IMG/VR virus record: IMGVR_UViG_3300017917_003339
Location: 1-64,000 of that record
DNA length: 64,000 bases
Source: a virus
Direction: 5' to 3' (one strand)
Positions 17,654 to 59,673 of the stretch are shown here, piece after piece. The notes below the pieces were generated by a model. It had not been told where the DNA came from. It did not search any database and saw only the letters and a list, made by a program, of their open reading frames with translations. How positions within the stretch are numbered: position 1 is the first letter of the stretch; each line of letters begins with the position of its first letter. The position numbers were made by a program, and so were the translations under genes.

Positions 17654-18469
17654 TTAATCAGTGACTATCTCACTTTTTGGTATCAAAGACATGAGGTATT
17701 CTCGGTCTTGAGTGAAAACTGGTGTGTTATAATCTGGTAACCATTTACTACGTTGTACTGGTTCACCGTTTTGTCCTTCAATTGTTATCACATGTCTTTT
17801 AATGACAGTGCCTCGTTTATACTTTGGCGCATAGTCATTCCAATTAACACCCTTCTCTTGGAAAAGCATTTCTTGTTTTTCGTCACTAGACTTGTTCATT
17901 GTAGCTGAGTGACCCAACAACGCGTGTGCCGCCATACTAACGCTGTTACGAGTACAGTCTTGCTGGCGCCAGATAAAATAGTTGGCAACCTCTCTGATGT
18001 CTGGAATAACAAACACCCTTGAGTCGAATACCGCATCAATTTCTGGAAAATCACCAGTTACAAGCTTTTCGATTACTTCTTCTTTGGTGTATTTAAAACT
18101 CAATAAAAGTCTAAGCATCATTTTGTTAAACGAAGCTGTTATCTTTGAAGCTGAAATACTACATAGCTTCTGTACTTTACCATCAAATGGTAACTCAGAA
18201 TCAATGTTGTCAATTGTTGAAAACACAAGGCTGATTTCATCTGATTGAGTATAAGCAAAGGCTGGTACCATGTACTTACATAACTCGATTGTAGCAGCAT
18301 CCATTACGTTTGACAACAAGTCATCAAACGGCTTATTGAATTTTTTGGTATATTTGCTAAAACCCTTACCATCAAGTCGTATGATAACATACGACCTGTT
18401 TGGTATCTTAAGGTTATAACATGACTCGTATTCTTTCATACGGTCTGATAATGATTGAGTTTTTCCCAT
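17654..18469 (-). CDS. tRNA(His) guanylyltransferase-like 3'-5' polymerase (Thg1-like)
   Basis: 271 aa, typical length. The catalytic palm motifs are visible: VIIRLDGKGFSKYTKKFNKP near residue 28 and FAYTQSDEISLVFS near residue 72, carrying the two metal-binding Asp sites. Later WRQQDCTRNSVSMAAHALLG matches the family. Thg1 adds G to the 5' end of tRNA-His; bacterial and archaeal Thg1-like proteins repair 5'-truncated tRNAs by templated 3'-5' addition. No tRNA-His was found in the window, so a repair or processing role for the phage tRNAs is the more attractive reading. Confidence 0.92.
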   Translation of the reverse strand: MGKTQSLSDRMKEYESCYNLKIPNRSYVIIRLDGKGFSKYTKKFNKPFDDLLSNVMDAATIELCKYMVPAFAYTQSDEISLVFSTIDNIDSELPFDGKVQKLCSISASKITASFNKMMLRLLLSFKYTKEEVIEKLVTGDFPEIDAVFDSRVFVIPDIREVANYFIWRQQDCTRNSVSMAAHALLGHSATMNKSSDEKQEMLFQEKGVNWNDYAPKYKRGTVIKRHVITIEGQNGEPVQRSKWLPDYNTPVFTQDREYLMSLIPKSEIVTD

Positions 18470-19732: not shown

Positions 19733-20668
19733 TTATTTTTCTAACCACAAAAAATCATGGCTAATTTTTGTGTCATACAAGCAAAATTCTACGATAACCT
19801 TTTCGTATTCCATACCATTTCTGGTCAAATGCAATTTGGTTCGTTGTACATCATGCTTAACTTTCTCATAGTTAACATCATACCATCTGAGTGTCATCAT
19901 GTTAACAAACATTCCGTTGTCCAACTTCTTAAAGTAGTTTCTGGACAAGTGAGCATTGTTAATCTCTGCCAATTCTTGAAGTCTTGGTTTCTGGTCTTCC
20001 GTTATAATACAACCAATATGTGCTTCAAAGTAACAATCCTTTGGCATCGGGGCATCACCAACTGGAGCAGCTGGGTGCCATGGCACTGTTTCAATCTTCT
20101 TGCGGACAACCTTAAAACCTTGGCTTTCTAACACACTTTCAATCTTTAAACATTCATTGTAAGCCCCAGTGTTGGTACCGAAAAAGTGTGATGATGTCAT
20201 TACGTCACGCATAACGCTTTGACCTTTGTTCTCTAAATCTAAGATGATTGGTTTAACTGGGGTTGCTGAATTTATCAACCCACAGATACCTCTGAATCTA
20301 TCTTCTTGACCTTCTTTCAATTGTACCGTAACATGTATCTCAAATGGAATCATGTCGTCAACTTGGGATTCTTTGTATTGAATACCTTGCCATTTTTCCG
20401 CTTTTAAGCGCATTGTTTCTTCGATTTCCTCGTGGGAATACCCTAACTCATATGCGATGGAGATAGCGGTTAAAATCACGTCTACTGACTCTTCTAGGAT
20501 TCTACCTTTCTCTATGAATCTGTGGATTGTACCAGCAGCATTGTCAAAAGGCAATACCACCTTGGCCAACTCACCAGATTCCTCAGCAACCTTAAGTGCT
20601 TTTTGAGATAGCGTTTTCTTGTCAGCTAGTGAAAGTCTTTGTATATAGTCTAATAACTTGAATTCCAT
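19733..20668 (-). CDS. MazG-like nucleotide pyrophosphohydrolase fused to an unknown domain
   Basis: 311 aa. The N-terminal 95 residues are MazG-like: KVAEESGELAKVVLPFDNAA then ILEESVDVILTAISIAYELG, with the EExxE and ExxxD metal sites. The remaining 200 residues (from MIPFEIHVTVQLKEGQEDRF) form two similar-looking alpha/beta halves that I do not recognise. The start overlaps the stop of the PRPP synthetase by one base, tying it to nucleotide supply. Phage MazG proteins degrade dNTPs or alarmones. Confidence 0.78.
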   Translation of the reverse strand: MEFKLLDYIQRLSLADKKTLSQKALKVAEESGELAKVVLPFDNAAGTIHRFIEKGRILEESVDVILTAISIAYELGYSHEEIEETMRLKAEKWQGIQYKESQVDDMIPFEIHVTVQLKEGQEDRFRGICGLINSATPVKPIILDLENKGQSVMRDVMTSSHFFGTNTGAYNECLKIESVLESQGFKVVRKKIETVPWHPAAPVGDAPMPKDCYFEAHIGCIITEDQKPRLQELAEINNAHLSRNYFKKLDNGMFVNMMTLRWYDVNYEKVKHDVQRTKLHLTRNGMEYEKVIVEFCLYDTKISHDFLWLEK

Positions 20669-21651
20669 TAGAATCTTTCCCCTTTTAAACCTTCATAACT
20701 TGAATGACTGTTAATGGCTAGGATGGCTAAACCAATTTGTTTTGCCATAGATACCACTTTTATCTTAGGGATACCGTAACCTATAGGTTCGTTACCCTTA
20801 TCCAACGAATCACTGATAACCAATTCGGTAAGAACTGATTTTTCAATACGACCCAAAGCAGGACCAGACAACACGCCATGGCTGATAATTGCTCTAACGC
20901 TGTTGGCACCAGCTTCCATGATAACTTCAGCGGCTTTACATAGTGTACCAGCGGTATCAACCATATCATCCAATATGATTACGTCTTTGCCAGTTACATC
21001 ACCGATGATAACCATTTCATCAATTACGTTAGCTTGTTTACGTGTTTTATCAAGCATTACATAGTTAATAGCAATATCATGATATTTACCCAATTGGTCT
21101 TTCATGCGCTTAACGCGTTTACCAGAACCAGCATCAGGACCACACAAGATTGTATTCTCGTTGTAGATGCTAGCGATGTAGCTATCGAAAATGTTTTTAC
21201 CTTCCAAGTGTGTTATTGGAATGTTGAAGAACCCTTGGATTTGGTCAGCATGTAAGTCAAATGTAACCACACCTGTGGCACCACGATGCTCAATCATTTC
21301 AGCCATAACCTTTGCACCGATTGGACCACGAGATTGGTCTTTCTTGTCTTGGCGAGCATAAGGAAAGTAAGGTAAGATAGGGATAATCTCTTTGGCGGCA
21401 GCACGCTTAGCAGCATCTATCGCCAAATTGAGTTTGATAATCTCATCTGAGTTGTTAGGGCTTGTCAGCAAGTAAACACGTTTACCTCTGATTGAATTGC
21501 AGAAATCAACACATAATTCACCATCGGAAAATTTTTGTGAATTGGCATAATCAACAAAAATTGGGTCTGTAGACTTTTCTCGAATTGATTTGATAATCGC
21601 TTCGGCCAATTTTTGTCTGTCATCAATTGATATAAGGACTGATTCTAACAT
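20668..21651 (-). CDS. prs: ribose-phosphate pyrophosphokinase (PRPP synthetase)
   Basis: 327 aa, normal length. Family blocks are intact: LPYFPYARQDKKDQSRGPIG near residue 93, GVVTFDLHADQIQGFF near residue 132, and the PRPP loop VIILDDMVDTAGTLCKA near residue 224. It makes PRPP from ribose 5-phosphate and ATP. PRPP is the co-substrate of the NAMPT encoded 6.5 kb away, so the phage carries all steps from ribose 5-phosphate and nicotinamide to NAD+. It has its own TAnnTTTG promoter. Confidence 0.95.
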   Translation of the reverse strand: MLESVLISIDDRQKLAEAIIKSIREKSTDPIFVDYANSQKFSDGELCVDFCNSIRGKRVYLLTSPNNSDEIIKLNLAIDAAKRAAAKEIIPILPYFPYARQDKKDQSRGPIGAKVMAEMIEHRGATGVVTFDLHADQIQGFFNIPITHLEGKNIFDSYIASIYNENTILCGPDAGSGKRVKRMKDQLGKYHDIAINYVMLDKTRKQANVIDEMVIIGDVTGKDVIILDDMVDTAGTLCKAAEVIMEAGANSVRAIISHGVLSGPALGRIEKSVLTELVISDSLDKGNEPIGYGIPKIKVVSMAKQIGLAILAINSHSSYEGLKGERF

Positions 21652-21667
21652 AAGTTGTAATTTTTAG

Positions 21668-21675
21668 CAAAGATA
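21668..21675 (-). promoter_or_regulatory. TAnnTTTG promoter element
   Basis: Minus strand TATCTTTG, 16 nt before the PRPP synthetase start. Confidence 0.6.
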
Positions 21676-21681
21676 CAAAAT

Positions 21682-21710
21682 AAAAAATGAATAACCAAGC
21701 GGTTATTCAT
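21682..21710 (-). terminator. intrinsic terminator
   Basis: Arms TGAATAACC / GGTTATTCA with loop AAGC, then a T run on the minus strand. The stop codon of the 57-aa gene lies in the first arm. Confidence 0.78.
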
Positions 21711-21876
21711 CTTTTTTTAATTTTTTGCTAATCCAGTAGGCTCCATATGCGATAGCGGCTGCTATTGCTATGTATTTTACAAGATGAACAAAGATTACCA
21801 CACCAACAAATATCATCTTAAAGACGATAATAAGCAGCAATGCTGCCAAAAAGAATAAAATTAGTTTAAGTTTCAT
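21703..21876 (-). CDS. small membrane protein
   Basis: 57 aa by my translation from the ATG at 21874-21876. Two hydrophobic segments (LILFFLAALLLIIVF and YIAIAAAIAYGAYWI) and a basic tail KKLKKDE suggest two transmembrane helices with a cytoplasmic C-terminus. Its stop codon is inside the terminator hairpin. Function unknown. Confidence 0.65.
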   Translation of the reverse strand: MKLKLILFFLAALLLIIVFKMIFVGVVIFVHLVKYIAIAAAIAYGAYWISKKLKKDE

Positions 21877-21887
21877 ATTTTTTGTTT

Positions 21888-22244
21888 TTAATCAATTTTT
21901 TTCCACACTCTATCGTGCCATTTTGTCTTGTATGTCCCTAACTCATAGCTACCATTGTACAACACAATGTCAAGCGCTGTTGGTAGTTCGGAATACAATT
22001 TATCCCATTCAGCTTTCTGTTCTTCTGAAAAACCCTCCGTTTGTATTTTGAAAGTTTTTTCTTCATCCCTGAAACCATTTAGAATTATGTCTATGGCTTC
22101 ATAAATGGTGTCTTCACCGAACGGTGGTATATAATCTTCACCATCGTTATGCATGTTAACTATAAAACCGTCTTTTAGGCTCCAACGTAAATTTTTTAAG
22201 AGTTTTACGTGTTCCTCTTTTAATTCAAATTTAATTACGCTCAT
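21888..22244 (-). CDS. unknown 118-aa protein
   Basis: 118 aa, acidic, alpha/beta (SVIKFELKEEHVKLLKNLRW). The start overlaps the Sir2 stop by one base, so the two are translationally coupled. No family recognised. Coupling suggests a partner or regulator of the sirtuin, which is inference. Confidence 0.7.
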   Translation of the reverse strand: MSVIKFELKEEHVKLLKNLRWSLKDGFIVNMHNDGEDYIPPFGEDTIYEAIDIILNGFRDEEKTFKIQTEGFSEEQKAEWDKLYSELPTALDIVLYNGSYELGTYKTKWHDRVWKKID

Positions 22245-22999
22245 TACTCGTCGTTTTTATCACTTCCAATGGCTTGAACCATTAGATTATTAACCAATTC
22301 TGTTACCCCTTCAACAGCACCCTTTTCAATGTAAGTGATGTTAAGTTCTGGGTACTCCAACCCTAACGATTTTGTTGGCGCTGGGTCGACAAAATAGATA
22401 GGCACATCTCGTTTACACTTTTCAAAAAAGTTATAAGTGTAACCAATATTCATACTGGTACCAATCACAATGATTATGTCAGCTTCAATAAACGCTTCTA
22501 ACGCATTGTAAAAGAAAAACGGAAACTCACCAAACCAAACAATGTGTGGTCTTAACTGTGAACCGTATTCTTCATCCTTATCACCAATGTTTATATCATC
22601 GTAACCAATATCATAAACCTTTTGTGTTGCAACTAATAGTGGGTTGTCCATACCAAAACATGTTCTAGCCTTAGTCAACTCACCGTGTAAGTGTAAGATT
22701 TTAGTTGAACCCGCTCTTTCGTGTAGGTCGTCTACGTTTTGTGTGACAATCGTTACATCATACTCTGATTCAAGTGTAACCAACGCTTTGTGGGCATCGT
22801 TAGGATGAACAGTTGGTAACTGTCTACGTCTTGCGTTGTAGAAATCCAATACCTTAGAACGGTCTTTTCTCCAACCTTCTGGTGTGGCAACTTCATCAAT
22901 CTTAAAGTTTTCCCACAACCCATCCTTGGTATCCCTAAACGTATCGATACCAGACTCTTTGCTGACTCCAGCACCTGTAAATATAACTACCTTTTTCAT
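22244..22999 (-). CDS. Sir2-family NAD+-dependent deacylase
   Basis: 251 aa. NAD+-binding motifs: FTGAGVSKESGIDTFR at residues 7-22 and TQNVDDLHERAG at 86-97; the catalytic His is H105 in LHLHGEL. A YNARRR stretch at 54-59 gives the Tyr-x-x-Arg pair seen in CobB/SIRT5-type desuccinylases. The zinc-binding Cys pairs are missing, with a single Cys in ARTCFGMD. It may deacylate proteins or, as some Sir2 domains do, consume NAD+. It belongs to the NAD+ and ADP-ribose gene block. Confidence 0.92.
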   Translation of the reverse strand: MKKVVIFTGAGVSKESGIDTFRDTKDGLWENFKIDEVATPEGWRKDRSKVLDFYNARRRQLPTVHPNDAHKALVTLESEYDVTIVTQNVDDLHERAGSTKILHLHGELTKARTCFGMDNPLLVATQKVYDIGYDDINIGDKDEEYGSQLRPHIVWFGEFPFFFYNALEAFIEADIIIVIGTSMNIGYTYNFFEKCKRDVPIYFVDPAPTKSLGLEYPELNITYIEKGAVEGVTELVNNLMVQAIGSDKNDE

Positions 23000-23301
23000 T
23001 ATCTAAGGGTTCTAATGAACGCCAAGGTTCTTAGAAATAATCTAAGTGTTATGAAAAAACCACCAACAAAACCAAAGTCATACCATGCTCCGTTGTTACG
23101 TACTGCATATATCGCCACATCGTCCCATATAAGACTACCAATAAAAGATGGGAACATAATCAAACCATGCCATGTTCCACCCCAGAACCCGTATACATGC
23201 TCGTCAGGGTTCGTGAAAGTCACATGTGCTGCATCAGCACATCCAGTGAATAACATTGCTGCCAGCAACGCTATAATTACTACTAAAATTCTTTTTTTCA
23301 T
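22999..23301 (-). CDS. putative lipoprotein with membrane segments
   Basis: 100 aa. The N-terminus is a signal peptide with lipobox (LLAAMLFTGC, Cys at about residue 20). The rest is aromatic-rich with a predicted hydrophobic C-terminal helix (FVGGFFITLRLFLRTLAF). Envelope location is likely. Phage lipoproteins often mediate superinfection exclusion, but nothing specific shows this here. Coupled to Sir2 by a one-base overlap. Confidence 0.65.
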   Translation of the reverse strand: MKKRILVVIIALLAAMLFTGCADAAHVTFTNPDEHVYGFWGGTWHGLIMFPSFIGSLIWDDVAIYAVRNNGAWYDFGFVGGFFITLRLFLRTLAFIRTLR

Positions 23302-23684
23302 TCGTCTAATAATTTTTTAAGTCTTTTTTTAACTTCTTGTTTTACCCTTTCTTCAAAGGTTCTACTCATTACATTTTCAATGACTTCTTGAGTAATTTTG
23401 TTTATTTTGTTATCAACGTGTTGTCTTAAAGATAACTCAAATTCATTTAGTTTTTTATCAAGTTCACGCTTAAGGTATTCTTTCTTACATTCAATCTCAT
23501 CACTTGTCATTGAACTAAAATGTAAGTCAATAAATTTATTCAACTCTTCTTTGAGTTCTATTGGTGTGATAACCATTGTATCACCCTTTTGGTTTTCAAA
23601 ACTTATTGTTTTCTTTTCAAATGGTAACCATGTGTCATCGATTCTTAACTTATTAAATTCTTTTAATTTAGATATTCTCGCCAT
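23298..23684 (-). CDS. unknown helical protein
   Basis: 128 aa. A beta N-terminal third (DTWLPFEKKTISFENQKGD) precedes a long, charged coiled-coil-like region (ECKKEYLKRELDKKLNEFEL) to the C-terminus. Overlaps both neighbours by a few bases, in operon. No family recognised. Confidence 0.68.
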   Translation of the reverse strand: MARISKLKEFNKLRIDDTWLPFEKKTISFENQKGDTMVITPIELKEELNKFIDLHFSSMTSDEIECKKEYLKRELDKKLNEFELSLRQHVDNKINKITQEVIENVMSRTFEERVKQEVKKRLKKLLDE

Positions 23685-24111
23685 AATGGTTAAACATTAA
23701 CTCATAAACCTCAGCCCATTCTGTTTCGGCATCAAAACCAGCCTTGTCTTCAAACAAAACATTCATGTAAGGTTTTTTATCGTAATTGCCATAACCCTTA
23801 AGGTCTGTGACAACTTCTGGATTTTCATTCACATACTTAAAATGAATGTTATTCTCTTCAAACAATTGAAGATATTCTTCAACTTCATTTGGGTGAGAAC
23901 ATGTGTATATCACCATTTCAACATCTGGCAATTTGCTTAAATATTGCAAGGTCTCTTTGGCCATTGGGTAAAATTCCTTTGGAACATTACCTGCCTTGTA
24001 ATTTGGTCTTAGTATTGTACTATGAATGTCAAAAAACCAAAATGTTTTGTCCCACCCTCTTTGACTCTTAAGGTCAAAATGATTGATTTGAATTGCTCTT
24101 GTTATGCTCAT
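23668..24111 (-). CDS. HAD-like phosphatase
   Basis: 147 aa. Motif I is TFWFFDIHSTILRPNY near residue 23, with Asp-x-His in place of Asp-x-Asp. Motif II is VEMVIYTCSHPNEVEEYL near residue 64, and a late acidic site is NVLFEDKAGFDAE. The His at motif I position 3 is unusual and may change or weaken catalysis. Overlaps the neighbouring genes by 4-17 nt. Confidence 0.7.
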   Translation of the reverse strand: MSITRAIQINHFDLKSQRGWDKTFWFFDIHSTILRPNYKAGNVPKEFYPMAKETLQYLSKLPDVEMVIYTCSHPNEVEEYLQLFEENNIHFKYVNENPEVVTDLKGYGNYDKKPYMNVLFEDKAGFDAETEWAEVYELMFNHYGENI

Positions 24112-24290
24112 AATTTGTATAATTGTCTAAAATCAACTACTTTCATTGAATAATACGTATCTCCTTGTTTGAAGAATACGGTGTCGCCAATTTGTGTTGT
24201 GTTTTTAGGTTCCCATTTTTCCAACACACTTATTGGTAACACGGTTTCGCCTTCATTGGCTACACCAACTTTAATCGACTGTTCCGCCAT
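24108..24290 (-). CDS. unknown small beta-rich protein
   Basis: 60 aa (MAEQSIKVGVANEGETVLPI), probably a small beta barrel-like domain, overlapping the HAD genes on both sides. No family recognised. Confidence 0.6.
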   Translation of the reverse strand: MAEQSIKVGVANEGETVLPISVLEKWEPKNTTQIGDTVFFKQGDTYYSMKVVDFRQLYKL

Positions 24291-24858
24291 TAGTATCGTT
24301 TAAAAATTTTATTATTTTCTCTTTGACCCCAGATTGTTTAATACCCTCATAGAGTCTTGGTGTGTGAACAAAGTTCTTAAGTCCATAAACCAAATTACCG
24401 TCAGGTGTTATGTATTCACCAAGTTGCATATCATCTACCGCCACCCAAGATTCAACTTGGTTGTTTTTAAGCCAATGGTCAATCTCAAGAATTCTAGCAC
24501 GTTCATACCAACCCTTGTACATAAACATAGCACCAGCCAATTCATCAAAATCGCTAAGTTTAGGTGTTAGTGCTATGGGTTTTTTTATAATGCCTTGTGA
24601 TTCATAAAAAATACCTAATTCTTCTAAATTAGCCCATCTTTTCCAATCAGAAGAAACAACTATTTCAGCACCAGTTTTTTCAAGGATTTCATTAAGAACC
24701 TTTATGGCTTTTTTGTTGAAATTATCAAATCGTTCTATAACTGGAATAGACCCGTCGGCTATTGTTTGCCCAACACTTCTATTTTGTTTCTTGAATCGGC
24801 TACCAAATTCACTACCTAAACATATAACCCCATCGTGGTCTAAAAATATAACTTTCAT
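24271..24858 (-). CDS. HAD domain of Swiss Army Knife RNA-repair type
   Basis: 195 aa. Motif I is MKVIFLDHDGVICLGSEFG, motif II is AEIVVSSDWKRWANLEELG near residue 65, and the acidic site SWVAVDDMQLGEY lies near residue 131. The SSDWK form and the WxxVDD ending are typical of HADs attached to Swiss Army Knife RNA repair modules. With the HAD at 9379 and the Thg1-like protein it forms a possible RNA end-repair set. Confidence 0.8.
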   Translation of the reverse strand: MKVIFLDHDGVICLGSEFGSRFKKQNRSVGQTIADGSIPVIERFDNFNKKAIKVLNEILEKTGAEIVVSSDWKRWANLEELGIFYESQGIIKKPIALTPKLSDFDELAGAMFMYKGWYERARILEIDHWLKNNQVESWVAVDDMQLGEYITPDGNLVYGLKNFVHTPRLYEGIKQSGVKEKIIKFLNDTNGGTVD

Positions 24859-24862
24859 AAAA

Positions 24863-24897
24863 AAATAAATTCGTACCGCAAAGATACGAATTTATTT
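24863..24897 (-). terminator. combined terminator and promoter palindrome
   Basis: Perfect 13-bp arms AAATAAATTCGTA / TACGAATTTATTT around 9 nt, followed by a T run on the minus strand. The loop and arm edge contain TATCTTTG (24879-24886), the -7 element of the next gene. It can end transcription of the 84-aa gene and start that of the HAD gene. Confidence 0.6.
24879..24886 (-). promoter_or_regulatory. TAnnTTTG element inside the palindrome
   Basis: Minus strand TATCTTTG, 20 nt before the HAD ATG at 24858. Confidence 0.6.
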
Positions 24898-24904
24898 TGA
24901 AAAA

Positions 24905-25159
24905 TCAAAGCTTTATTACGATTATTTCCATTGTCCCTCTTTGTTCAAAAGTTTCCACGAATTCAACCCATTTGTCGTCATCTATTTCAAACAAATCTGA
25001 TTCTAATTCTAAACCTATTTCATTTAGAGAATCTTCATAGGTATTCTCCCAATAATCACCATCGTGAATTACCTTTAAAAGCTCTAATACTTCTTTTCTA
25101 TTCTCTAACTTAGCAACATTGAAATGGCCATTGCCATCCATACATACACAGGCTACCAT
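24905..25159 (-). CDS. unknown acidic 84-aa protein
   Basis: 84 aa (MVACVCMDGNGHFNVAKLEN), with an acidic helical middle (YEDSLNEIGLELESDLFEID). It starts on the last base of the macro-domain gene, so it is coupled to it and may act with it. No family recognised. Confidence 0.65.
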   Translation of the reverse strand: MVACVCMDGNGHFNVAKLENRKEVLELLKVIHDGDYWENTYEDSLNEIGLELESDLFEIDDDKWVEFVETFEQRGTMEIIVIKL

Positions 25160-25824
25160 TATGGAACATATTTTACAACCGTAACATCTTCACCGTTCAG
25201 TTCCTCTTGGATTATCCTTTCAATGATATTCCAATCACCACCAGCCAATCCAGCGCCAATCATCGGCAACCCGAATTTCTTGCCACTAAACTTAGCTTTC
25301 ATGGCAGCTAAGGACTTGCGTAAAGCTGTGTAATCTAAGTCCATTCTACCTTGCAAACGTCCCTTGTAGTCAAATTGACCATACAAGTTTACAACGATGG
25401 GTGTTGTGTTCTCAGTGTAGGTAATGGTTCCTAGCTTGTCTTGGTCACCAGAATTGGTGGTGCAATCAACAGCGTAAGCCTCAGGGAACTTATGTTTAAT
25501 TTGTGGGGCTATACCAGCACCCATTGTACAAAAGCAGTTGCAACAGTGTGCGATAACTTCGTACTGGTCAGCGTCGCGAACTAAATCGCCTTCTACATAC
25601 TTTATCATACTCAATACAGGTTTTGTTAAGTCTCGGTATAAGAACACAGTCTCAACACTGTATCGTCTTAAACCGTTAATTATTGTTGGATTCAATACTG
25701 AATCAATTGTTTTCAATCGGTGTTTTCCGATTTTAAGGATTTTTTTTACTTGGCCGCTTCTTAGCGTTTTGTATCTCCCAGTCTTTTTGATTAGGAAATC
25801 GTCTTTTTTCAACTCGTTAACCAT
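25159..25824 (-). CDS. macro domain protein (ADP-ribose binding/hydrolysing)
   Basis: 221 aa. The first 75 residues are a basic extension (KKTGRYKTLRSGQVKKILKI). The macro domain follows: IKYVEGDLVRDADQYEVIAH, the CNCFCTMGAGIAPQIKHKFP loop near residue 95 and the GLPMIGAGLAGGDWNIIERI phosphate-binding loop near residue 190. Closest by eye to ADP-ribose-1''-phosphatase or DarG-like macro domains. It may remove ADP-ribose from protein or nucleic acid or clear ADP-ribose products. Overlaps the NADAR gene by 8 nt. Confidence 0.92.
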   Translation of the reverse strand: MVNELKKDDFLIKKTGRYKTLRSGQVKKILKIGKHRLKTIDSVLNPTIINGLRRYSVETVFLYRDLTKPVLSMIKYVEGDLVRDADQYEVIAHCCNCFCTMGAGIAPQIKHKFPEAYAVDCTTNSGDQDKLGTITYTENTTPIVVNLYGQFDYKGRLQGRMDLDYTALRKSLAAMKAKFSGKKFGLPMIGAGLAGGDWNIIERIIQEELNGEDVTVVKYVP

Positions 25825-26302
25825 TTTGTTCTTTTTTTATAGTTTCACGTACTTTCATGATGGCTTCACCAAGCCAGTTGGTTCCTTTCCATTTTGACTT
25901 GTCAAGGATGTGTGGGTCTGTTTCATGTAACCCTATACCCCAAATGGTATCGTAAGGACTAGCTTCAACTAATTCTCTATCGCCAGTTTTTAACAACTCC
26001 GATTTCATTTTAGGGTTTTGTGTGAACTTAGCGTAGTTTGCTTCGTAAACGATTTCACGACATACAGCTTCCCATTGGTCTTTGTCAAACCCCTTAACTT
26101 TTCTACCCAAGGCTTTTTGTTCTTTTGGACCTTTGGTTTCCATGATTTCTTTGTAAGAATCAACATCACCAAACAACAAGGCTTTTTTGGCCATCATGTA
26201 TTGCTCACAGCAATTGTATTTAACTCCGTCGATTGTAAACTCTGAGGGACACCATTGGCTAAACGTGCCACCCCAGAAGAATACGTATTTGTCTGTTTTC
26301 AT
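25817..26302 (-). CDS. NADAR (YbiA-like) family protein
   Basis: 161 aa, full domain. Signature segments are VFFWGGTFSQWCPSEF near residue 7, CCEQYMMAKKALLFGD near residue 31, and SPYDTIWGIGLHETDPHI near residue 124. NADAR proteins act on N-glycosidic bonds of ADP-ribose-like or riboflavin-pathway compounds; some remove ADP-ribose from guanine in nucleic acids. Directly coupled to the macro domain gene, which strengthens a role in reversing ADP-ribosylation. Confidence 0.92.
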   Translation of the reverse strand: MKTDKYVFFWGGTFSQWCPSEFTIDGVKYNCCEQYMMAKKALLFGDVDSYKEIMETKGPKEQKALGRKVKGFDKDQWEAVCREIVYEANYAKFTQNPKMKSELLKTGDRELVEASPYDTIWGIGLHETDPHILDKSKWKGTNWLGEAIMKVRETIKKEQNG

Positions 26303-26916
26303 TATTCAGATAAAGATTTAAAGTGTCTTTTACCGATTTCGTCATAAGCGTTAGCCACAAGGCTGTACGTATACTCGAATAATCGTCTAAAAGGGTTGTT
26401 CAACAAAGTTGCTAACAATGACAACGGCCAATAAGAAATCCAAGCTACAATAGCTGATTTGTTTTCACTACCTATTGGCACGACTTTTATTTTTAACTCA
26501 GCCATTGATTTAACATTGTAACTCCAGATACTTAACCCATTATCTTTAAGCCTATCGCATAACATGGATATATGATTATCATTTTTTTCATCAAAGTCAG
26601 GTCGGTCTATAATTAACTTGGCTTTTGTTCTTTTGAAAATGTTAATTTTACGTTTAACAAATTCATTCCACTTCAAGAATGACCAAATTACACCTGCGAC
26701 TAAATACCCTAACACAAATAGTGTTGTGGATGCATAATCGTTCTTCACGAATTCCCAGACATCACGTCCGTAATTCCATAACAACAAAGCTAATGCAATA
26801 CTTACTGCGGTTGTTGCTACCCCTTCTTTTTCTACCTCTAGTGAAATCATTGTCACTATGGCCGCTACTATACCTACTATAAGTATTACATAGCTATTTG
26901 CTAAAATTTCTAACAT
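26302..26916 (-). CDS. membrane protein with four predicted TM segments
   Basis: 204 aa. Three hydrophobic segments lie in the first 85 residues (VILIVGIVAAIVTMISL, VSIALALLLWNYG, TLFVLGYLVAGVIWSFL). A soluble middle (DRPDFDEKNDNHISMLCDRL) and a further hydrophobic stretch (WISYWPLSLLATLL) follow. One-base overlap with the NADAR gene. Function unknown; membrane partners of ADP-ribose enzymes are conceivable but unproven. Confidence 0.68.
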   Translation of the reverse strand: MLEILANSYVILIVGIVAAIVTMISLEVEKEGVATTAVSIALALLLWNYGRDVWEFVKNDYASTTLFVLGYLVAGVIWSFLKWNEFVKRKINIFKRTKAKLIIDRPDFDEKNDNHISMLCDRLKDNGLSIWSYNVKSMAELKIKVVPIGSENKSAIVAWISYWPLSLLATLLNNPFRRLFEYTYSLVANAYDEIGKRHFKSLSE

Positions 26917-27145
26917 CTCTAATGTGTGTTAATATTGGTTTATAAATAATTTTTAACCCTAAGAGTTTTAATAAGTCGGTAATAGTTGATAATTCGTGTT
27001 TAAGAATTGGGGTGTTTTCTATAAATTCAATTATGGGTTCAAAATCATTTGAATATTTATCAAACTTTATAAAAACACCCCTATCTTCCAATCTGATTGT
27101 AACGTTATTACCGAGTAACGTTTCAGCAGATACATCTTTAATCAT
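26894..27145 (-). CDS. unknown 83-aa protein
   Basis: 83 aa (MIKDVSAETLLGNNVTIRLE), small alpha/beta. It lies 5 nt downstream of NAMPT and overlaps the membrane protein by 23 nt, in the same operon. No family recognised. Confidence 0.65.
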   Translation of the reverse strand: MIKDVSAETLLGNNVTIRLEDRGVFIKFDKYSNDFEPIIEFIENTPILKHELSTITDLLKLLGLKIIYKPILTHIRDVRNFSK

Positions 27146-27150
27146 ACGTA

Positions 27151-28713
27151 TTAAACTAATTTGGCACGTTCTCTAACCTCTTCAAAGGTCCATTCTTGGG
27201 TTAGTTTACCCATGTTAAACACTTCTACTAATTCGTCTTTTACAGTCTCAAAATCAGGTTCAGCTGATGTTACAGTTCTGTATGTACCATCATCGTTTTT
27301 AACCAATTTCAATCGACCTTTTTTAGACTTCTTGAATGAGCGAGTAATATTACCGTCAGCATCCATTTCAGTTGGTGATTTAACCACGTCGACCTCTTTA
27401 CCATCCAACACAGCAAAGCATGCTTTGGTTGCGAAGTTTTGAGTATCACGGTCAATACCAGCTTGTAGCAATTTACCACCCATACCCAACGCTAAGTTCT
27501 CTGGAGAAATCTTTTCTTCTTCAAGCAACGCGTAGATTTCTTTGATAGATTCCAAGTTGATACCATCACCTTGAATCACACGTACTTGTGGTGGCAATAC
27601 TTTGTAACCTTTATCGTTTACAGTGTAACCGAATTTGTCAAAAAGAATACGGAAAATCTCTCTAAGTGAGTTGATTACGTGTCCAGAATCAGGACGGATA
27701 ACGAGTTGGTTGCCAGGCTCGGCAGGTCTAGAAAGGATAAGGTCTTTCAATTCACCACCCCAATAATCAGAACATGCTCTAAAGATGTTAAATGAGTCAG
27801 AAACACAAGCCACAAGCCCAGTTGGGAACAATGTCAATACGCGTTTCATCATTTCAATTTCACCATCTTCACCTCTAAGTGTCATGATTGAGTGTTCAGT
27901 TGCAGGGATTGACAAACCATAAACGGTGTCAGTGTTGTAGTTTTCTACAATGTACTTAGAGCCCATTAGCGTGTCTGAACCTCTAAAGTTTACAAGGTGA
28001 GCAGAACCACCAATACCCGCTGATTCAACAGAAGATACACCTCTGAAACCGAAGTCATTCAATACGAAATCTACAAGGAAACTTCTAAGAGCATCATCGT
28101 AAGATGTGCAGTTTTTGAACGCTTCGTCAACAATTTTACGAACTTCTCTTGAAAGAGTAGCTACAGTGATAGGATACCACACTTGTAAAAGGATTGTTTC
28201 TAAGAAGTTAGTTAACCAAGCACACTCTGGGTCAAGGCTTTCGATAATCATAAGTACGTTGTGTGTACCTACTACAGTCCCCTCAGGAACAGCTTTGATG
28301 CTTACTGGCAAACGACCATCGTATTTGTCAACGATGTAGTCAAATTTACGTCTGTCAAATACATCGTCACGACCAAACACACCATGTTTGGTTCCAAGAT
28401 AATCATACGCTTCATCAATTTCCTCACGTGTGATAGCTAAACCCTCTAGGTATCGTTTCATGATGATTTGAAGACCGTAGAATACAGTTTCTGAGAATTT
28501 ACCACCTCTTGATTCCAAATAGGAAACCATTTTGGTCATTTCAGTACCGTAAAACTCATGATGCGAATACTTGTAAGCATCAGAACAAAGAATTAAATTC
28601 TCTGGTTTTTCTAGGATTTTAGCAATTGGTTTTGCTAAGGATTCAACCAACGCCATGTCGTTGATTTCAATCGCTTCCCTAAGTCGCTCAATAAGATATT
28701 TTTTTAGTCTCAT
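27151..28713 (-). CDS. nicotinamide phosphoribosyltransferase (NAMPT)
   Basis: 520 aa. Homology begins near residue 36 (NLILCSDAYKYSHHEFYG) and is strong throughout: DFGFRGVSSVESAGIGGSAH at 221-239, SIPATEHSIM at 268-277 with H273 matching the catalytic His, and VIRPDSGHVINSL at 338-350. It makes NMN from nicotinamide and PRPP. The first 33 residues are an extra, basic helix (MRLKKYLIERLREA) not found in ordinary NAMPT and similar to the N-termini of three other proteins here. PRPP synthetase and NMN adenylyltransferase genes flank it, completing NAD+ synthesis. Confidence 0.96.
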   Translation of the reverse strand: MRLKKYLIERLREAIEINDMALVESLAKPIAKILEKPENLILCSDAYKYSHHEFYGTEMTKMVSYLESRGGKFSETVFYGLQIIMKRYLEGLAITREEIDEAYDYLGTKHGVFGRDDVFDRRKFDYIVDKYDGRLPVSIKAVPEGTVVGTHNVLMIIESLDPECAWLTNFLETILLQVWYPITVATLSREVRKIVDEAFKNCTSYDDALRSFLVDFVLNDFGFRGVSSVESAGIGGSAHLVNFRGSDTLMGSKYIVENYNTDTVYGLSIPATEHSIMTLRGEDGEIEMMKRVLTLFPTGLVACVSDSFNIFRACSDYWGGELKDLILSRPAEPGNQLVIRPDSGHVINSLREIFRILFDKFGYTVNDKGYKVLPPQVRVIQGDGINLESIKEIYALLEEEKISPENLALGMGGKLLQAGIDRDTQNFATKACFAVLDGKEVDVVKSPTEMDADGNITRSFKKSKKGRLKLVKNDDGTYRTVTSAEPDFETVKDELVEVFNMGKLTQEWTFEEVRERAKLV

Positions 28714-28730
28714 ATTAATTAAAATTTATG

Positions 28731-28738
28731 CAAATATA
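28731..28738 (-). promoter_or_regulatory. TAnnTTTG promoter element for NAMPT
   Basis: Minus strand TATATTTG, 17 nt before the NAMPT ATG. Confidence 0.65.
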
Positions 28739-28755
28739 CAATTTTATTTTTGTTC

Positions 28756-29100
28756 CTACAAATTATTTGTGTTAATTATCAACACTTTTTTTCCTAGTTT
28801 TTCCGCTTTGGATATGGAATCCTTGGTACCCTTAGATTCCATATCCCAGAAAGCAACTACAAATTCAGCTTCTTCAATTATTTGAGTATTGCGTTTAAAA
28901 CCAGCTGATTTACCATACTTTTCCCAATCAGGTAAAAAGATTTTTGTCGGTATGTTGTTTTCGTTGGCAAAGCGCTCACCTAATTTGTCAGCACCAACAG
29001 CGCCACCGCTAACTATTTCGGTTATTTTTAACCCTGATAGCGTTTCAACAACTTTATCATAGTTGTTAAACCCTCTTGAACCAACCACAGCTACTTTCAT
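28756..29100 (-). CDS. SLOG-family (DUF2493/YspA-like) nucleotide-ligand binding protein
   Basis: 114 aa, one Rossmann-like domain. MKVAVVGSRGFNNYDKV opens it, VSGGAVGADKLGERFA near residue 33 is the ligand-binding GGAxGAD motif, and FVVAFWDMESKGTKDSI near residue 80 closes the fold. SLOG proteins sense or cleave nucleotide ligands, including NAD+-derived ones in defence systems. Its place between NAMPT and the rest of the block supports such a ligand. Overlaps the next gene by 4 nt. Confidence 0.85.
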   Translation of the reverse strand: MKVAVVGSRGFNNYDKVVETLSGLKITEIVSGGAVGADKLGERFANENNIPTKIFLPDWEKYGKSAGFKRNTQIIEEAEFVVAFWDMESKGTKDSISKAEKLGKKVLIINTNNL

Positions 29101-30206
29101 TCTAACACACCATTTTCGTTTCTAACCGCAAAGTACTCTGTGGTTAACTTTGATGGTTCTTTAACCCCAGCAGCAGCCAATAACTCTTTCATTTCGTGCA
29201 TAACAGCCTTGTGGTAGTTGTACACCCTAACTTTTTTGTCTTCTGGGTTAAGACCCTTGATAAGAATTTTGTTTTGGGTTGCTATACCTACTGGGCATGT
29301 GTTTTTATTGCACTCTCTAGCTTGAATACATCCAAGGCTAAGCATGAACGCTCTAGCAGCGTTTACAATGTCAGCACCGTTGGCTCTTAGCTTAAGTATG
29401 TCATAAGCTGACGTGGCTTTACCAGAAGCTATAACTCTGATATCCTCTCTAAGTCCAAACAAAGACAATGTTTCATCAACATAACGCAACGCATCCATAA
29501 GTGGCATACCAACATGGTTGGTGAATACTATTGGAGCAGCACCAGTACCGCCTTCACCACCGTCAACTGTTATGAAATCTGGCCACATTTTATGAACAGC
29601 CATTTCATTACAAAGTCTTTTAAATTCATATTCATCACCCAAACACAATTTAATTCCGATTGGAAGACCATTGCTAAGGCTACGCAAACGTGCAATAAAG
29701 ATTAATAATTCTTTTGGATTTGAAAAAGCAGAGTGAAATGGTGGGCTTAACACATCAGTGTTTGGTTCTACACCACGAATATCCGCAATTTCTTGTGTAT
29801 TCTTGGCAGCTGGCAATATACCGCCGTGACCAGGTTTGGCCCCTTGTGACAGTTTAATTTCCACCAACTTAACGTTGGCTTTTTTGATAGAAGCTAAGAA
29901 TGCTTTCTCATCAAAAACTCTTTTACCATCAATGGTTTTACCAGCTCCAAAATACCCTGTACCTATTTGGAAACACAAATCACCACCGTTTTTGATATGG
30001 TATGGGGAAATCCCACCCTCACCAGTATTGTGATAAAATTGTCCCAACTTGGCACCACCATTCAAAGCCAACACAGCAGCGTTGGACAATGCGCCATAAC
30101 TCATGGCGCTGATATTGAAGATAGAAGCTGAATAAGGCTTCTTACAAAATTTTGAACCTATTTGTATTCTAGGGATTGTTACATCGTCAACAGATACTGG
30201 GTACAT
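29097..30206 (-). CDS. FMN-binding glutamate synthase-like protein, C-terminal part (frameshifted)
   Basis: 369 aa. FMN-barrel motifs: SAMSYGALSNAAVLALNGGA near residue 34, EIKLSQGAKPGHGGILPAAK near residue 116, FITVDGGEGGTGAAP near residue 212, and the 3Fe-4S-type Cys cluster in CIQARECNKNTCPVG near residue 303. In relatives this domain follows the N-terminal segment encoded just upstream in another frame (30214-30597). The shift lies at a run of six T (plus strand, 30231-30236). Either the gene is inactivated, needs a +1 frameshift, or the assembly has an indel. Confidence 0.85.
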   Translation of the reverse strand: MYPVSVDDVTIPRIQIGSKFCKKPYSASIFNISAMSYGALSNAAVLALNGGAKLGQFYHNTGEGGISPYHIKNGGDLCFQIGTGYFGAGKTIDGKRVFDEKAFLASIKKANVKLVEIKLSQGAKPGHGGILPAAKNTQEIADIRGVEPNTDVLSPPFHSAFSNPKELLIFIARLRSLSNGLPIGIKLCLGDEYEFKRLCNEMAVHKMWPDFITVDGGEGGTGAAPIVFTNHVGMPLMDALRYVDETLSLFGLREDIRVIASGKATSAYDILKLRANGADIVNAARAFMLSLGCIQARECNKNTCPVGIATQNKILIKGLNPEDKKVRVYNYHKAVMHEMKELLAAAGVKEPSKLTTEYFAVRNENGVLE

Positions 30207-30213
30207 AGAATGT

Positions 30214-30597
30214 CTAAGGAATTCGTACCCTTTTTTGGTATACGTCTAGCTGAGTTCCAAATGGTGTGCTATTGACATCACCCTTGGCTTTTTGGTAAAC
30301 GTCAGAGCGTTTCTCTCTGTTGTAAGGCGTTCCGTTAGTATCGTGTTCAATAAAGTATTGCTGTATCTTTGAACGCTCGTGTTCAAAAACCCATCTAAGC
30401 CTACCCAATAGTGGATAGTTTCGTAACAACGCGTGTTTTGTTTGCATAATGTCGTGAATAACAACAACCAAACAAACAGCTGAAATAGTTGCCAAAGCCC
30501 ATAACACAGGACTTTGTAGGAAGTATGATGCAAATCCGAAGATAAACATCCAAGCGATAAAAAATGTCAGTATTTTATCTCTAGTAAGATTGCTCAT
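30214..30597 (-). CDS. FMN-binding glutamate synthase-like protein, N-terminal part (frameshifted)
   Basis: 127 aa. Two membrane segments (FFIAWMFIFGFASYFL and ALATISAVCLVVVIHD) precede QQYFIEHDTNGTPYNREKRS and FGTQLDVYQK, the usual N-terminal region of bacterial FMN-binding glutamate synthase family proteins. The frame then reads RVRIP and stops, while the other frame continues GYEFLRHSMYPV into the barrel domain as in intact homologues. The two pieces are therefore one broken or frameshifted gene. Confidence 0.82.
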   Translation of the reverse strand: MSNLTRDKILTFFIAWMFIFGFASYFLQSPVLWALATISAVCLVVVIHDIMQTKHALLRNYPLLGRLRWVFEHERSKIQQYFIEHDTNGTPYNREKRSDVYQKAKGDVNSTPFGTQLDVYQKRVRIP

Positions 30598-30599
30598 GA

Positions 30600-31205
30600 T
30601 TATTTAATTTTTACGTTCTCAAAATCAACGTGTAAGTCTGTGGTAAATTCTTTACCGAATCTGTTTTTAACAACTTTTAAAGTTGTGTTAGGTCTTTTCT
30701 TCCAAAACAAAAGAAAATCATACCATTTTTTTCCGTGGTTAACTCTTTTAATAGCGACAAACATGTCAGCAAGATGTAATTGAGAACGATTGGTTTGAAA
30801 ACTATCGTTCTTTGGTGCAAAACGTTTTAACTGAGTTGAGACGAATATTGGTGTATTGTAGTCTTGAGACAGACGAGCCAAATCTTCATAATTTATAATC
30901 GGAAAATCAATTATCACCAAATCAAATCCCTTTTGGAAAAAAGGTTTTAAGTTAGTTTCAGGTAAGACCACAGAGTCAATAGTGATAGCACCATTAACAT
31001 CTACTTTTTTACCCAAATATTTCTCAATTCTTTTTAAGATTGGTTTAGATTTTGTTTCGGTAAGATATAATACTTTCTTCCCATCTAAATAAACCTCAGC
31101 GGCCAATATAGAAAGCAATGTGGTTTTACCACTACCAGCGTATGAACCAAAAAACACTTTTGGTTTGTCTTCTAGGTTTAGCCCTAGTAATTTTAATAAT
31201 TTCAT
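30600..31205 (-). CDS. RecA/DnaB-like P-loop ATPase
   Basis: 201 aa. Walker A is FFGSYAGSGKTTLLSILA at residues 18-35 and Walker B is FDLVIIDFPIINYEDLA near residue 93. A polar strand FVSTQLKRFAP follows, as in DnaB, RadA and KaiC cores, and the C-terminus is a beta hairpin (TLKVVKNRFGKEF). Only one ATPase domain and no helicase N-terminus are present. It may be a recombination or helicase accessory factor. Overlaps nadM by 4 nt. Confidence 0.75.
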   Translation of the reverse strand: MKLLKLLGLNLEDKPKVFFGSYAGSGKTTLLSILAAEVYLDGKKVLYLTETKSKPILKRIEKYLGKKVDVNGAITIDSVVLPETNLKPFFQKGFDLVIIDFPIINYEDLARLSQDYNTPIFVSTQLKRFAPKNDSFQTNRSQLHLADMFVAIKRVNHGKKWYDFLLFWKKRPNTTLKVVKNRFGKEFTTDLHVDFENVKIK

Positions 31206-32188
31206 TTTAAAGCAATCAATTTGTCGGTTACTACTTTTTTCAAGAATGTTTTCATAAGTTCAATATGCTCTGGAACGATTTTATCCTCCAATTTCCATGT
31301 GTATTTGATTGGTGGTACGTGACCGTCGCCAAGACTTGGTTCTTGTTCATGTTCAAACAAATCAGTCAAATCAAAATATTTAACCTCAGCAATATCGTCA
31401 GAAGCCTCAGGTTTTCCCATTTGGTCCCATTCATAGAACAAGAACAATGTTGTCATGATACCAGAATCTTCTCTCTCATAACGCCAATCCTTGATTTGTT
31501 GACTGGCAACATACGTTGGTTTAAGGCCAGATAATTTGGTTTCTTCAAACAACTCTCTACGAGCAGCGGTTTCATAACAATCATCCGTTCTGTCGACAAA
31601 CCCACCAACAAATCTAAATTTGTCTTCTGCTGGTTTTCTCGCTAAAAGGATTTGTCCGTTATAGTTGGCTACAACAATGTCAACAGTTGGATAAGTTACT
31701 GGTCTTTGTTTTGAAATACCGTAGATGACCCCAGCTCTGAAATCCTCAGAGTCTAACACTTCACTAGAAGCATTTGCTCTAATATCTGTAGCGTTGTGTG
31801 AAGACACTTGGTCTAGCATTTCTGTTTTGTGTTCCCCTGAATAGAAAGGAATAAATGAATCTCTGCTACCATACAAGATAGCTTGTTTTTCAGGGAATAT
31901 CGTTGCAAGAGTGTTGTCAACATTTTCAGACCATTTTTCATCGCTTCTATGGTCTGGCAACGCCATAACAATAACCTCTGGGTATCTTTCTTGGATTAAT
32001 TTTCTACGAGTTGCAAAATCCAATGGATTTCTTTTTGTGTTTTGAATTCTAGGGATTCCCAAGAAAACAACAACGTTTGAGTGCATTTCACATACTTTGT
32101 CTAAAACGCTAGTATGTCCTTCGTGTAAATATGGTGTTTGGAATCTTCCAATCATTACACCAACTTCTGGTTTTTTAATATCTTCCAT
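31202..32188 (-). CDS. nadM: bifunctional NMN adenylyltransferase / Nudix hydrolase
   Basis: 328 aa. The N-terminal nucleotidyltransferase has GRFQTPYLHEGHTSVL at 14-29 with the HxGH motif at 22-25, and GISKQRPVTYPT near 157-168. The C-terminal Nudix domain has FVGGFVDRTDD and ARRELFEET at about 193-217; the first acid of the Nudix box is Asp. NadM-Nudix proteins join NMN and ATP to NAD+ and hydrolyse ADP-ribose. With NAMPT and PRPP synthetase it completes a three-step NAD+ route. Own TAnnTTTG promoter upstream. Confidence 0.95.
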   Translation of the reverse strand: MEDIKKPEVGVMIGRFQTPYLHEGHTSVLDKVCEMHSNVVVFLGIPRIQNTKRNPLDFATRRKLIQERYPEVIVMALPDHRSDEKWSENVDNTLATIFPEKQAILYGSRDSFIPFYSGEHKTEMLDQVSSHNATDIRANASSEVLDSEDFRAGVIYGISKQRPVTYPTVDIVVANYNGQILLARKPAEDKFRFVGGFVDRTDDCYETAARRELFEETKLSGLKPTYVASQQIKDWRYEREDSGIMTTLFLFYEWDQMGKPEASDDIAEVKYFDLTDLFEHEQEPSLGDGHVPPIKYTWKLEDKIVPEHIELMKTFLKKVVTDKLIALK

Positions 32189-32207
32189 TTTTTATTCTTT
32201 TACGATG

Positions 32208-32215
32208 CAAATATA
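32208..32215 (-). promoter_or_regulatory. TAnnTTTG promoter element for nadM
   Basis: Minus strand TATATTTG, 19 nt before the nadM ATG. Confidence 0.65.
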
Positions 32216-35930: not shown

Positions 35931-36437
35931 TTAAAAACAATCTTTTAGTTGTTTTTTTTCGTATAATTCAAATCTGAATTTAAGACCATTTTCTTCGTGC
36001 ATCTCACTACCTTCAACAAGACACCAATCTTCTGAGTTTAACCCTTCCAAAAAGACATCACCTTCAATCTCGTGGTGTATTTGAGTCAAATACAATCTGT
36101 GAGCGTATTTAAACGCTTCTCTGTACAATTCAGCACCACCAATTATGAAAACTTGGTCATGGCTATTTTCGTTTGATGTTAGGATTTGTTCTAAGTCATT
36201 TGACACAATAGCACCGTTGGCCACATAATTTTCATCTCTAGTCATCACAATGTTCTTACGATTAGGCAAAGGTCTGAATTTTTCTGGTATACTCTCCCAA
36301 CACTTACGACCCATAACCACAGTGTGTCCCTTGGTTGTGTCTTTAAAGTATTTCATGTCTGTTGGCAAATGCCATGGCAAATCGTTATCTTTACCGATAA
36401 CTAAATTAGTTGACGCTGCTACGATTATGTTTATCAT
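35931..36437 (-). CDS. dihydrofolate reductase
   Basis: 168 aa, full length. Signature segments: VIGKDNDLPWHLPTDMKYFK near residue 13, TVVMGRKCWESIPEKFRPLP near residue 39, NIVMTRDENYV near residue 62 and VFIIGGAELYREAFKYAHRL near residue 94. It reduces dihydrofolate with NADPH for thymidylate synthesis. Common in large phages. A short unknown gene overlaps its start by 32 nt. Confidence 0.95.
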   Translation of the reverse strand: MINIIVAASTNLVIGKDNDLPWHLPTDMKYFKDTTKGHTVVMGRKCWESIPEKFRPLPNRKNIVMTRDENYVANGAIVSNDLEQILTSNENSHDQVFIIGGAELYREAFKYAHRLYLTQIHHEIEGDVFLEGLNSEDWCLVEGSEMHEENGLKFRFELYEKKQLKDCF

Positions 36438-59579: not shown

Positions 59580-59601
59580 AATACTATTTTTTATATTTTG
59601 T

Positions 59602-59673
59602 GGAGCTGACGGGAGTTGAACCCGCATCCTCTACCTTGCAAAGGTAGCGCTCAGCCAGTTGAGCTACAGCCCC
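59602..59673 (-). tRNA. tRNA-Ala(TGC)
   Basis: 72 nt, acceptor GGGGCTG/CAGCTCC, stem CTACC/GGTAG, loop TTTGCAA. Confidence 0.94.

What the first reader, a model, noticed from the sequence alone, without database searches (positions are those of the whole stretch)
20668..32188. Three-enzyme NAD+ synthesis set in a phage
PRPP synthetase, NAMPT and NMN adenylyltransferase-Nudix give ribose 5-phosphate to PRPP, nicotinamide to NMN, and NMN to NAD+. NAMPT plus NMN adenylyltransferase is the known NARP2 type of phage NAD+ reconstitution that overcomes NAD+-depleting immunity. Here each gene has its own promoter and PRPP supply is included.
Basis: partly seen in the sequence, partly recalled or inferred. 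Interest (0 to 1): 0.75.

Follow-up and report, generated by a model that had tools for sequence, protein, structure and literature searches.

The report
Phage NAD+ salvage gene cluster
A large virus of Bacteroidota-type bacteria carries all three enzymes needed to turn ribose 5-phosphate and nicotinamide into NAD+, set among ADP-ribose-handling genes; this fits a known way for phages to rebuild NAD+ that bacterial defences destroy, here with the sugar-phosphate supply enzyme added, but no activity has been shown.

Summary
On the minus strand, 20668-21651 encodes a class I PRPP synthase, 27151-28713 a true NAMPT, and 31202-32188 an NMN adenylyltransferase fused to a Nudix domain. Motifs, family models, trees and a predicted fold support all three, and they are under purifying selection. 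It is not NARP1: the NAMPT lacks the Namat selectivity motif, and the synthase does not group with Adps. The set is NARP2-like (NAMPT plus NMNAT) with a PRPP synthase added. All three enzymes recur in the same block in 21 of 26 distinct related contigs.

(1) The genes sit in one block with Sir2, Macro, NADAR, SLOG and HAD genes. (2) NMNAT-NAMPT-NADAR and NMNAT-NAMPT-Prs-like operons occur on Bacteroidota chromosomes beside an NrtR-like gene. (3) The promoters are Bacteroidota -7 elements (TAnnTTTG), conserved for NMNAT and often for the synthase, rarely for NAMPT.

Best reading: a module of Bacteroidota type that regenerates NAD+ during infection. The anti-NADase role is inferred. The Nudix domain plus the synthase could also recycle ADP-ribose to PRPP, making it a NARP1 equivalent by other chemistry; this is untested. 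Verdict: new variant of a known kind.

The parts
31202..32188 (-). NMN adenylyltransferase fused to Nudix (NadM/NatV type); GRFQ..LHEGH, NATDIR and RELFEE motifs intact
32207..32215 (-). Bacteroidota -7 element TATATTTGC of NMNAT, 18 nt before ATG; preceded by a terminator-like hairpin at 32254-32219
30600..31205 (-). small P-loop ATPase-like ORF
   Evidence: (weak)
29097..30206 (-). stand-alone glutamate-synthase FMN/Fe-S-like domain; in 3 of 26 relatives
28756..29100 (-). SLOG (YAcAr) protein, next to NAMPT; in 13 of 26 relatives
27151..28713 (-). nicotinamide phosphoribosyltransferase (Nampt type, GMGGKLLQ..DRD)
28730..28738 (-). -7 element TATATTTGC of NAMPT, 16 nt before ATG; rarely conserved in relatives
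25817..26302 (-). NADAR N-glycosidase-family protein
25159..25824 (-). Macro-domain protein (ADP-ribose processing)
24271..24858 (-). HAD_SAK_2 phosphatase (Swiss-army-knife RNA-repair HAD)
24878..24886 (-). -7 element TATCTTTGC of the HAD_SAK gene
23668..24111 (-). small conserved protein (DIHxT motif), weakly HAD-like; lies between NAMPT and NADAR in Fulvivirga chromosomes (56-58% identity)
22244..22999 (-). CobB/Sirt5-like sirtuin; no match to PADLOC defence models
21888..22244 (-). conserved small protein of unknown function, next to PRS in 26 of 26 relatives
20668..21651 (-). class I ribose-phosphate pyrophosphokinase (PRPP synthase)
21667..21675 (-). -7 element TATCTTTGC of PRS, 15 nt before ATG; terminator-like hairpin upstream at 21715-21682

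Best explanation
The block encodes a complete phage-borne NAD+ salvage module of Bacteroidota type. PRPP synthase makes PRPP from ribose 5-phosphate and ATP. NAMPT joins PRPP to nicotinamide, giving NMN. NMNAT adenylylates NMN to NAD+. The Nudix domain, by family, cleaves ADP-ribose to AMP plus ribose 5-phosphate (or NAD+ to AMP plus NMN) and may feed PRPP synthesis. Macro, NADAR and SLOG proteins probably process ADP-ribose derivatives. The most likely role is to hold up or restore NAD+ while the infected cell's NADase defences destroy it (a NARP2-like function). Shown here: gene identities, intact motifs, purifying selection, conserved synteny, promoter-like elements. Inferred: enzyme activities, flux, host, and the anti-defence role.
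For: NAMPT: Nampt-type motif and 100/100 separation from the Namat clade; pocket residues corresponding to human Y18, F193, R196, D219, H247, R311 and D313 are present. PRS: groups with bacterial Prs, apart from four Adps or Adps-like proteins (100/99), and passes PRK01259, which Adps does not. NMNAT-Nudix: NadM fold and motifs. Synteny: 21 of 26 distinct contigs carry all three enzymes in the block. Selection: dN/dS 0.04-0.26. Origin: the closest chromosomal NAMPTs found are from Bacteroidota (57-63%), and their operons hold NMNAT with NADAR and g23668 (Fulvivirga) or with a Prs-like gene (Mucilaginibacter), with an upstream gene resembling the ADPR-responsive repressor NrtR. Literature: NAMPT plus NadM in phages, also beside NADAR, is proposed to counter NAD+ depletion (PMC9503650; PMC7824862).
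Against: No activity or infection data exist. The record is a 92.5-kb metagenomic fragment and the host is inferred. PRS has its own terminator-flanked unit with MazG and might serve nucleotide synthesis instead. The Nudix core of two relatives (L009, L103) is degenerate, so ADP-ribose cleavage is not universal in the family. Three distinct related lineages with full flanks replace NAMPT with a remote NAMPT-like protein.
Confidence: 0.58

Rival explanations
1. General metabolic boost: the phage raises NAD+ and PRPP for its own large replication and nucleotide synthesis, without any NADase defence being involved.
For: DHFR (35931-36437) and MazG lie nearby; PRS is a separate promoter/terminator unit directly upstream of MazG; PRPP is a general precursor; the same genes look like housekeeping operons in Bacteroidota.
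Against: The conserved block is filled with ADP-ribose-handling genes (Macro 19, Sir2 21, NADAR 15 of 26) rather than nucleotide-synthesis genes.
Confidence: 0.25
2. NAD+ supply for NAD+-consuming RNA repair: the sirtuin acts with HAD_SAK, Thg1 and RNA ligase to mend cleaved tRNAs, and the salvage enzymes replace the NAD+ used.
For: HAD_SAK_2 at 24271-24858 and Thg1 at 17654-18469, an RNA ligase in the same record at 72564-73151, more than 30 tRNA genes; sirtuin plus SAK-HAD neighbourhoods are described as candidate RNA repair (PMC9503650).
Against: The sirtuin is CobB/Sirt5-like; it is absent from 5 of 26 contigs, of which two (042518_001152 and 021142_000007) still have all three NAD+ enzymes.
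Confidence: 0.13
3. NARP1: the synthase is Adps and the NAMPT homologue is Namat, making NAD+ directly from ADP-ribose pyrophosphate.
For: Both pathways pair a Prs homologue with a Nampt homologue, and Adps is often annotated as ribose-phosphate pyrophosphokinase.
Against: The Namat motif GSx..x..xTRD is absent, with GMGGKLLQAGIDRD in its place; trees separate both proteins from Adps and Namat; an NMNAT is encoded, which NARP1 does not need.
Confidence: 0.02

Closest known systems
NARP2 / KVP40-type NadV + NatV NAD+ salvage (for example Vibrio phage VspSw_1)
   Same: Nampt-type phosphoribosyltransferase plus NMNAT-Nudix; in VspSw_1 the two genes are adjacent.
   Different: Here a class I PRPP synthase is added; VspSw_1, Tunturi_5 and D481 have none. 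The block also carries Sir2, Macro, NADAR, SLOG and HAD genes.
NARP1 (Adps + Namat; SPbetaL1, Bas63)
   Same: Uses a Prs homologue and a Nampt homologue to make NAD+ from nicotinamide.
   Different: The window proteins are of the PRPP-using types; no Namat clamp motif, not Adps, and an NMNAT is present.
Bacteroidota chromosomal operons: NrtR-like / NMNAT / NAMPT / g23668 / NADAR (Fulvivirga) and NrtR-like / NMNAT / NAMPT / Prs-like (Mucilaginibacter)
   Same: Same gene content and order for the core; NAMPT 57-63%, NMNAT 41-47%, NADAR 50-52%, g23668 56-58% identity.
   Different: No NrtR-like regulator was seen beside the phage genes; phage PRS is a different Prs subfamily (about 25% identity to the Mucilaginibacter one).
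Huge phages LR756504, LR756502, LR745206 (634-642 kb, metagenomic)
   Same: All encode a Prs, an NMNAT-Nudix and a NAMPT or NAMPT-like gene.
   Different: Prs lies elsewhere in those genomes; LR745206 has the remote NAMPT-like type.

Membership tests
NARP2-type NAD+ reconstitution | Nampt (PRPP-using, not Namat) encoded | tested here: met
   (by sequence)
NARP2-type NAD+ reconstitution | NMN adenylyltransferase encoded | tested here: met
   (motifs and predicted fold)
NARP2-type NAD+ reconstitution | restores NAD+ and phage growth under NADase defence | not testable with these tools
   needs an experiment; the original 2024 paper is not in the library, so its definition is taken from my own knowledge and from reviews
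NARP1 | Namat SCH motif GSx..x..xTRD | tested here: not met
   window GMGGKLLQAGIDRD; SPbetaL1 GSFTYQYNTRD; Bas63 GSYTYQYMTRD
NARP1 | Prs homologue of the Adps clade | tested here: not met
   tree 100/99 apart from four Adps or Adps-like proteins; 309 bits to PRK01259 against 74-101 for Adps
Class I PRPP synthase | PRK01259 model over its cut-off and conserved PYARQD, DLHA.QIQGFF and DDM.DT.GT motifs | tested here: met
NadM bifunctional NMNAT/Nudix | HxGH and [SN]xTxxR nucleotidyltransferase motifs plus REx2EE Nudix core | tested here: met
   Nudix box has a one-residue insertion and E to D before the core
NadM bifunctional NMNAT/Nudix | NCBIfam equivalog cut-off | tested here: not met
   best 49 bits against a cut-off of 397: divergent, so named by motif and fold only
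Sirtuin-centred RNA repair neighbourhood | sirtuin with HAD_SAK or RNA ligase nearby | tested here: met
   the RNA ligase is about 50 kb away, so only weakly linked
Sirtuin-centred RNA repair neighbourhood | sirtuin of the RNA-repair clade, acting on RNA 2'-phosphates | not tested
   no sirtuin tree was built; best models are CobB-type deacylases

The most novel reading that the evidence does not exclude
The set forms a closed recycling loop for both products of NADase defences. The Nudix domain splits ADP-ribose to ribose 5-phosphate and AMP, PRPP synthase turns the ribose 5-phosphate into PRPP, NAMPT adds the freed nicotinamide and NMNAT completes NAD+. Macro, NADAR and SLOG proteins would feed in ADP-ribose from immune signals. 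This would be a functional equivalent of NARP1 reached by different chemistry, in huge phages of Bacteroidota.
Probability: 0.28. Interest if true: 0.65.

Novelty: new variant of a known kind. Interest (0 to 1): 0.45.

Why it matters
NAD+ depletion is a common bacterial defence, and the known phage answers either rebuild NAD+ from ADP-ribose (NARP1) or from nicotinamide (NARP2). A block that also encodes PRPP supply and ADP-ribose handling, conserved across a lineage of large phages, would show that some phages carry the whole salvage chain rather than depending on host PRPP. Its match to Bacteroidota operons points to a host source and gives a concrete gene set to test.

Tried and rejected
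NARP1 (Adps/Namat): rejected on motif, tree and family scores.

Sigma-70 promoters: no excess over shuffles, 46 against 48.8 +/- 6.6; replaced by the Bacteroidota -7 element.

Defence-type SIR2 NADase: no PADLOC match; the protein is CobB-like.

Remote NAMPT-like proteins in L053-L055, L067, L075, L077 and L102 as in-place Namat: they lack the Namat motif; substrate unknown.

NAD+-dependent DNA ligase as the NAD+ consumer: none in the 92.5-kb record.

Rfam intron in the split NAMPT genes of L022, L023, L025: no hit.

Close DNA relatives among named phages: none.

g23668 structure: model of moderate confidence, only weak HAD-fold hits.

Full report
WHAT IS THERE. The window is part of a 92,494-base IMG/VR virus record, linear and probably a fragment. 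It is 36% GC, and 88 of 100 non-overlapping ORFs lie on the minus strand. ARAGORN finds 32 tRNA genes and Rfam 33. The three named genes are at the stated coordinates, spread through an 11.5-kb block of about 20 tightly packed ORFs. That block also holds a CobB/Sirt5-like sirtuin, a Macro protein, a NADAR protein, a SLOG protein, a HAD_SAK_2 phosphatase and a stand-alone glutamate-synthase-like domain. No named phage record is similar at DNA level.

THE PRPP SYNTHASE. 20668-21651 scores 309 bits against NCBIfam PRK01259 (cut-off 297) and aligns with human PRPS1 and other solved class I enzymes at E about 1e-60. Adps, the NARP1 enzyme that is usually annotated under the same name, scores only 74-101 against that model. 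In the tree the window protein groups with bacterial and huge-phage Prs, apart from four Adps or Adps-like proteins with 100/99 support; the Adps branches are long, so finer placement is unsure.

THE NAMPT. 27151-28713 scores 515 bits against PRK09198 (cut-off 405) and matches solved vertebrate NAMPT at E about 1e-119 to 1e-123. The published Namat signature is GSx..x..xTRD with aromatic residues that hold adenine (PMC12774641). SPbetaL1 Namat has GSFTYQYNTRD and Bas63 has GSYTYQYMTRD; the window has GMGGKLLQAGIDRD. The residues that correspond to human Y18, F193, R196, D219, H247, R311 and D313 are present (the numbering was mapped by me). The tree separates the window clade from Namat with 100/100.

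THE NMNAT-NUDIX. 31202-32188 is divergent: its best NCBIfam hits are all bifunctional NadM models, but far below their equivalog cut-offs. The nucleotidyltransferase motifs (GRFQ..LHEGH, NATDIR) and the Nudix catalytic core (RELFEE) are present. The predicted structure (mean pLDDT 84, pTM 0.52, so the mutual orientation of the two domains is not reliable) has NadM entries 2qjt, 2r5w and 2qjo as its top six PDB hits. The Nudix box has a one-residue insertion before the core, and the core is degenerate in two relatives (L009, L103).

CONSERVATION. Scans of IMG/VR gave 92 loci from related contigs up to 368 kb. Among 26 contigs distinct by their identity pattern, with enough flank, all three enzymes are present in 21, in the order NMNAT - NAMPT - Macro - small conserved gene - Sir2 - PRS. 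Over the 26: Macro 19, Sir2 21, NADAR 15, g23668 25, g21888 26, SLOG 13. The raw tally of NAMPT is 25; it includes three remote NAMPT-like proteins and one fragment, which I left out of the 21. These are metagenomic contigs, and de-duplication was crude. dN/dS against up to six relatives is 0.04-0.26 for the three enzymes, with synonymous sites partly saturated.

PROMOTERS. A sigma-70 scan finds nothing above shuffles. The Bacteroidota -7 consensus TAnnTTTG (PMC9723704) does explain the gaps: exact TATnTTTGC occurs 15-19 nt before the ATG of NMNAT, NAMPT, HAD_SAK and PRS. In the window this element occurs 19 times on the coding strand against 3 on the other, and 10 of the 19 fall in the 7.6% of sequence just upstream of ORF starts. 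In relatives TAnnTTTG precedes NMNAT in 23 of 26, PRS in 27 of 46, HAD_SAK in 7 of 8, but NAMPT in only 5 of 27; most other genes of the block have 0-18%. Terminator-like hairpins lie before NMNAT and PRS. So the claim of own promoters is supported for NMNAT, fairly for PRS and weakly for NAMPT, at motif level only. By layout, NADAR and Macro would follow NAMPT in one transcript.

HOST AND ORIGIN. The bacterial sequences form a sister group to the phage clade (98/93). In Fulvivirga the local order is NrtR-like / NMNAT / NAMPT / g23668 / NADAR, and in Mucilaginibacter NrtR-like / NMNAT / NAMPT / Prs-like. The regulator resembles the ADPR-responsive repressor model at 133-139 bits, below its cut-off of 400. 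Together with the promoter element this makes a Bacteroidota host and a Bacteroidota source for the module likely; both are inferences.

COMPARISON. The three enzymes together are the canonical PRPS-Nampt-Nmnat salvage chain as described in PMC12774641. Phage NadV plus NadM, and NADAR beside them, have been described and proposed to counter NAD+ depletion (PMC9503650; PMC7824862). In phages carrying NAMPT, or NAMPT with NMNAT, namely D481, VspSw_1 and Tunturi_5, no Prs match was found; the huge phages LR745206, LR756502 and LR756504 do have one. I found no description of a phage block that joins class I Prs, NAMPT and NMNAT, but the library holds open-licence papers only and the original NARP paper could not be read.

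MECHANISM. Most likely: PRPP from R5P and ATP; NMN from PRPP and nicotinamide; NAD+ from NMN and ATP. If the Nudix domain acts on ADP-ribose, its product R5P would close the loop, so that both products of a NADase (nicotinamide and ADP-ribose) return to NAD+. That step is inference from the NadM family; the Nudix box variation speaks for caution. Rivals are a general metabolic boost, and NAD+ supply for RNA repair, for which HAD_SAK, Thg1 and an RNA ligase in the record give some support. No tool here can decide between them.

VERDICT. Real, conserved and correctly identified in its chemistry; the defence role is plausible but unproven. It is a known kind of pathway with an added enzyme and an unusually rich ADP-ribose neighbourhood.

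Noticed in passing
L022:8596-11128 (also L023, L025): The NAMPT gene is split by an insert of about 1 kb; in L022 and L023 it carries an HNH-like ORF (219 aa). L023 has a second insert and an extra C-terminal NAMPT fragment at 12453-12788. No Rfam intron was found.
   Followed up: partly
L053:2022-3683, L067:394-2142, L075:2845-4494, L077:5102-6781, L102:15935-17596: A remote NAMPT-like family (FGQGGGLRNxLKRD, about 25% identity) sits where NAMPT would be; neither Nampt nor Namat by motif.
   Followed up: partly
29097-30206: Stand-alone glutamate-synthase FMN/Fe-S-like domain in a phage, no PHROG match; present in 3 of 26 related contigs, between NMNAT and NAMPT.
   Followed up: partly
23668-24111: Small DIHxT protein of unknown function, 56-58% identical to a gene between NAMPT and NADAR in Fulvivirga chromosomes; probably part of NAD+ salvage.
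   Followed up: partly
61221-61299: tRNA-like gene called as tRNA-Sec (tca) by ARAGORN, among more than 30 tRNA genes; may be a stop-codon reader.
   Followed up: no
58776-59627: ORF of 283 aa resembling glutamyl-tRNA synthetase (224 bits to gltX, below cut-off), shorter than the full enzyme.
   Followed up: no
36618-37529: Bestrophin-family membrane protein, unexpected in a phage.
   Followed up: no
L009, L103: NMNAT-Nudix relatives with a degenerate Nudix core (RKISED, RKFMDE), so Nudix activity may be dispensable in part of the family.
   Followed up: partly
L099:9950-11530 (Prevotella phage Lak-B5): NAMPT homologue with a Namat-like motif (GSFTYNVRSRD); Lak-B5 also has a weak Prs match at 413605-414252, so a NARP1 candidate in Lak phages.
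   Followed up: no
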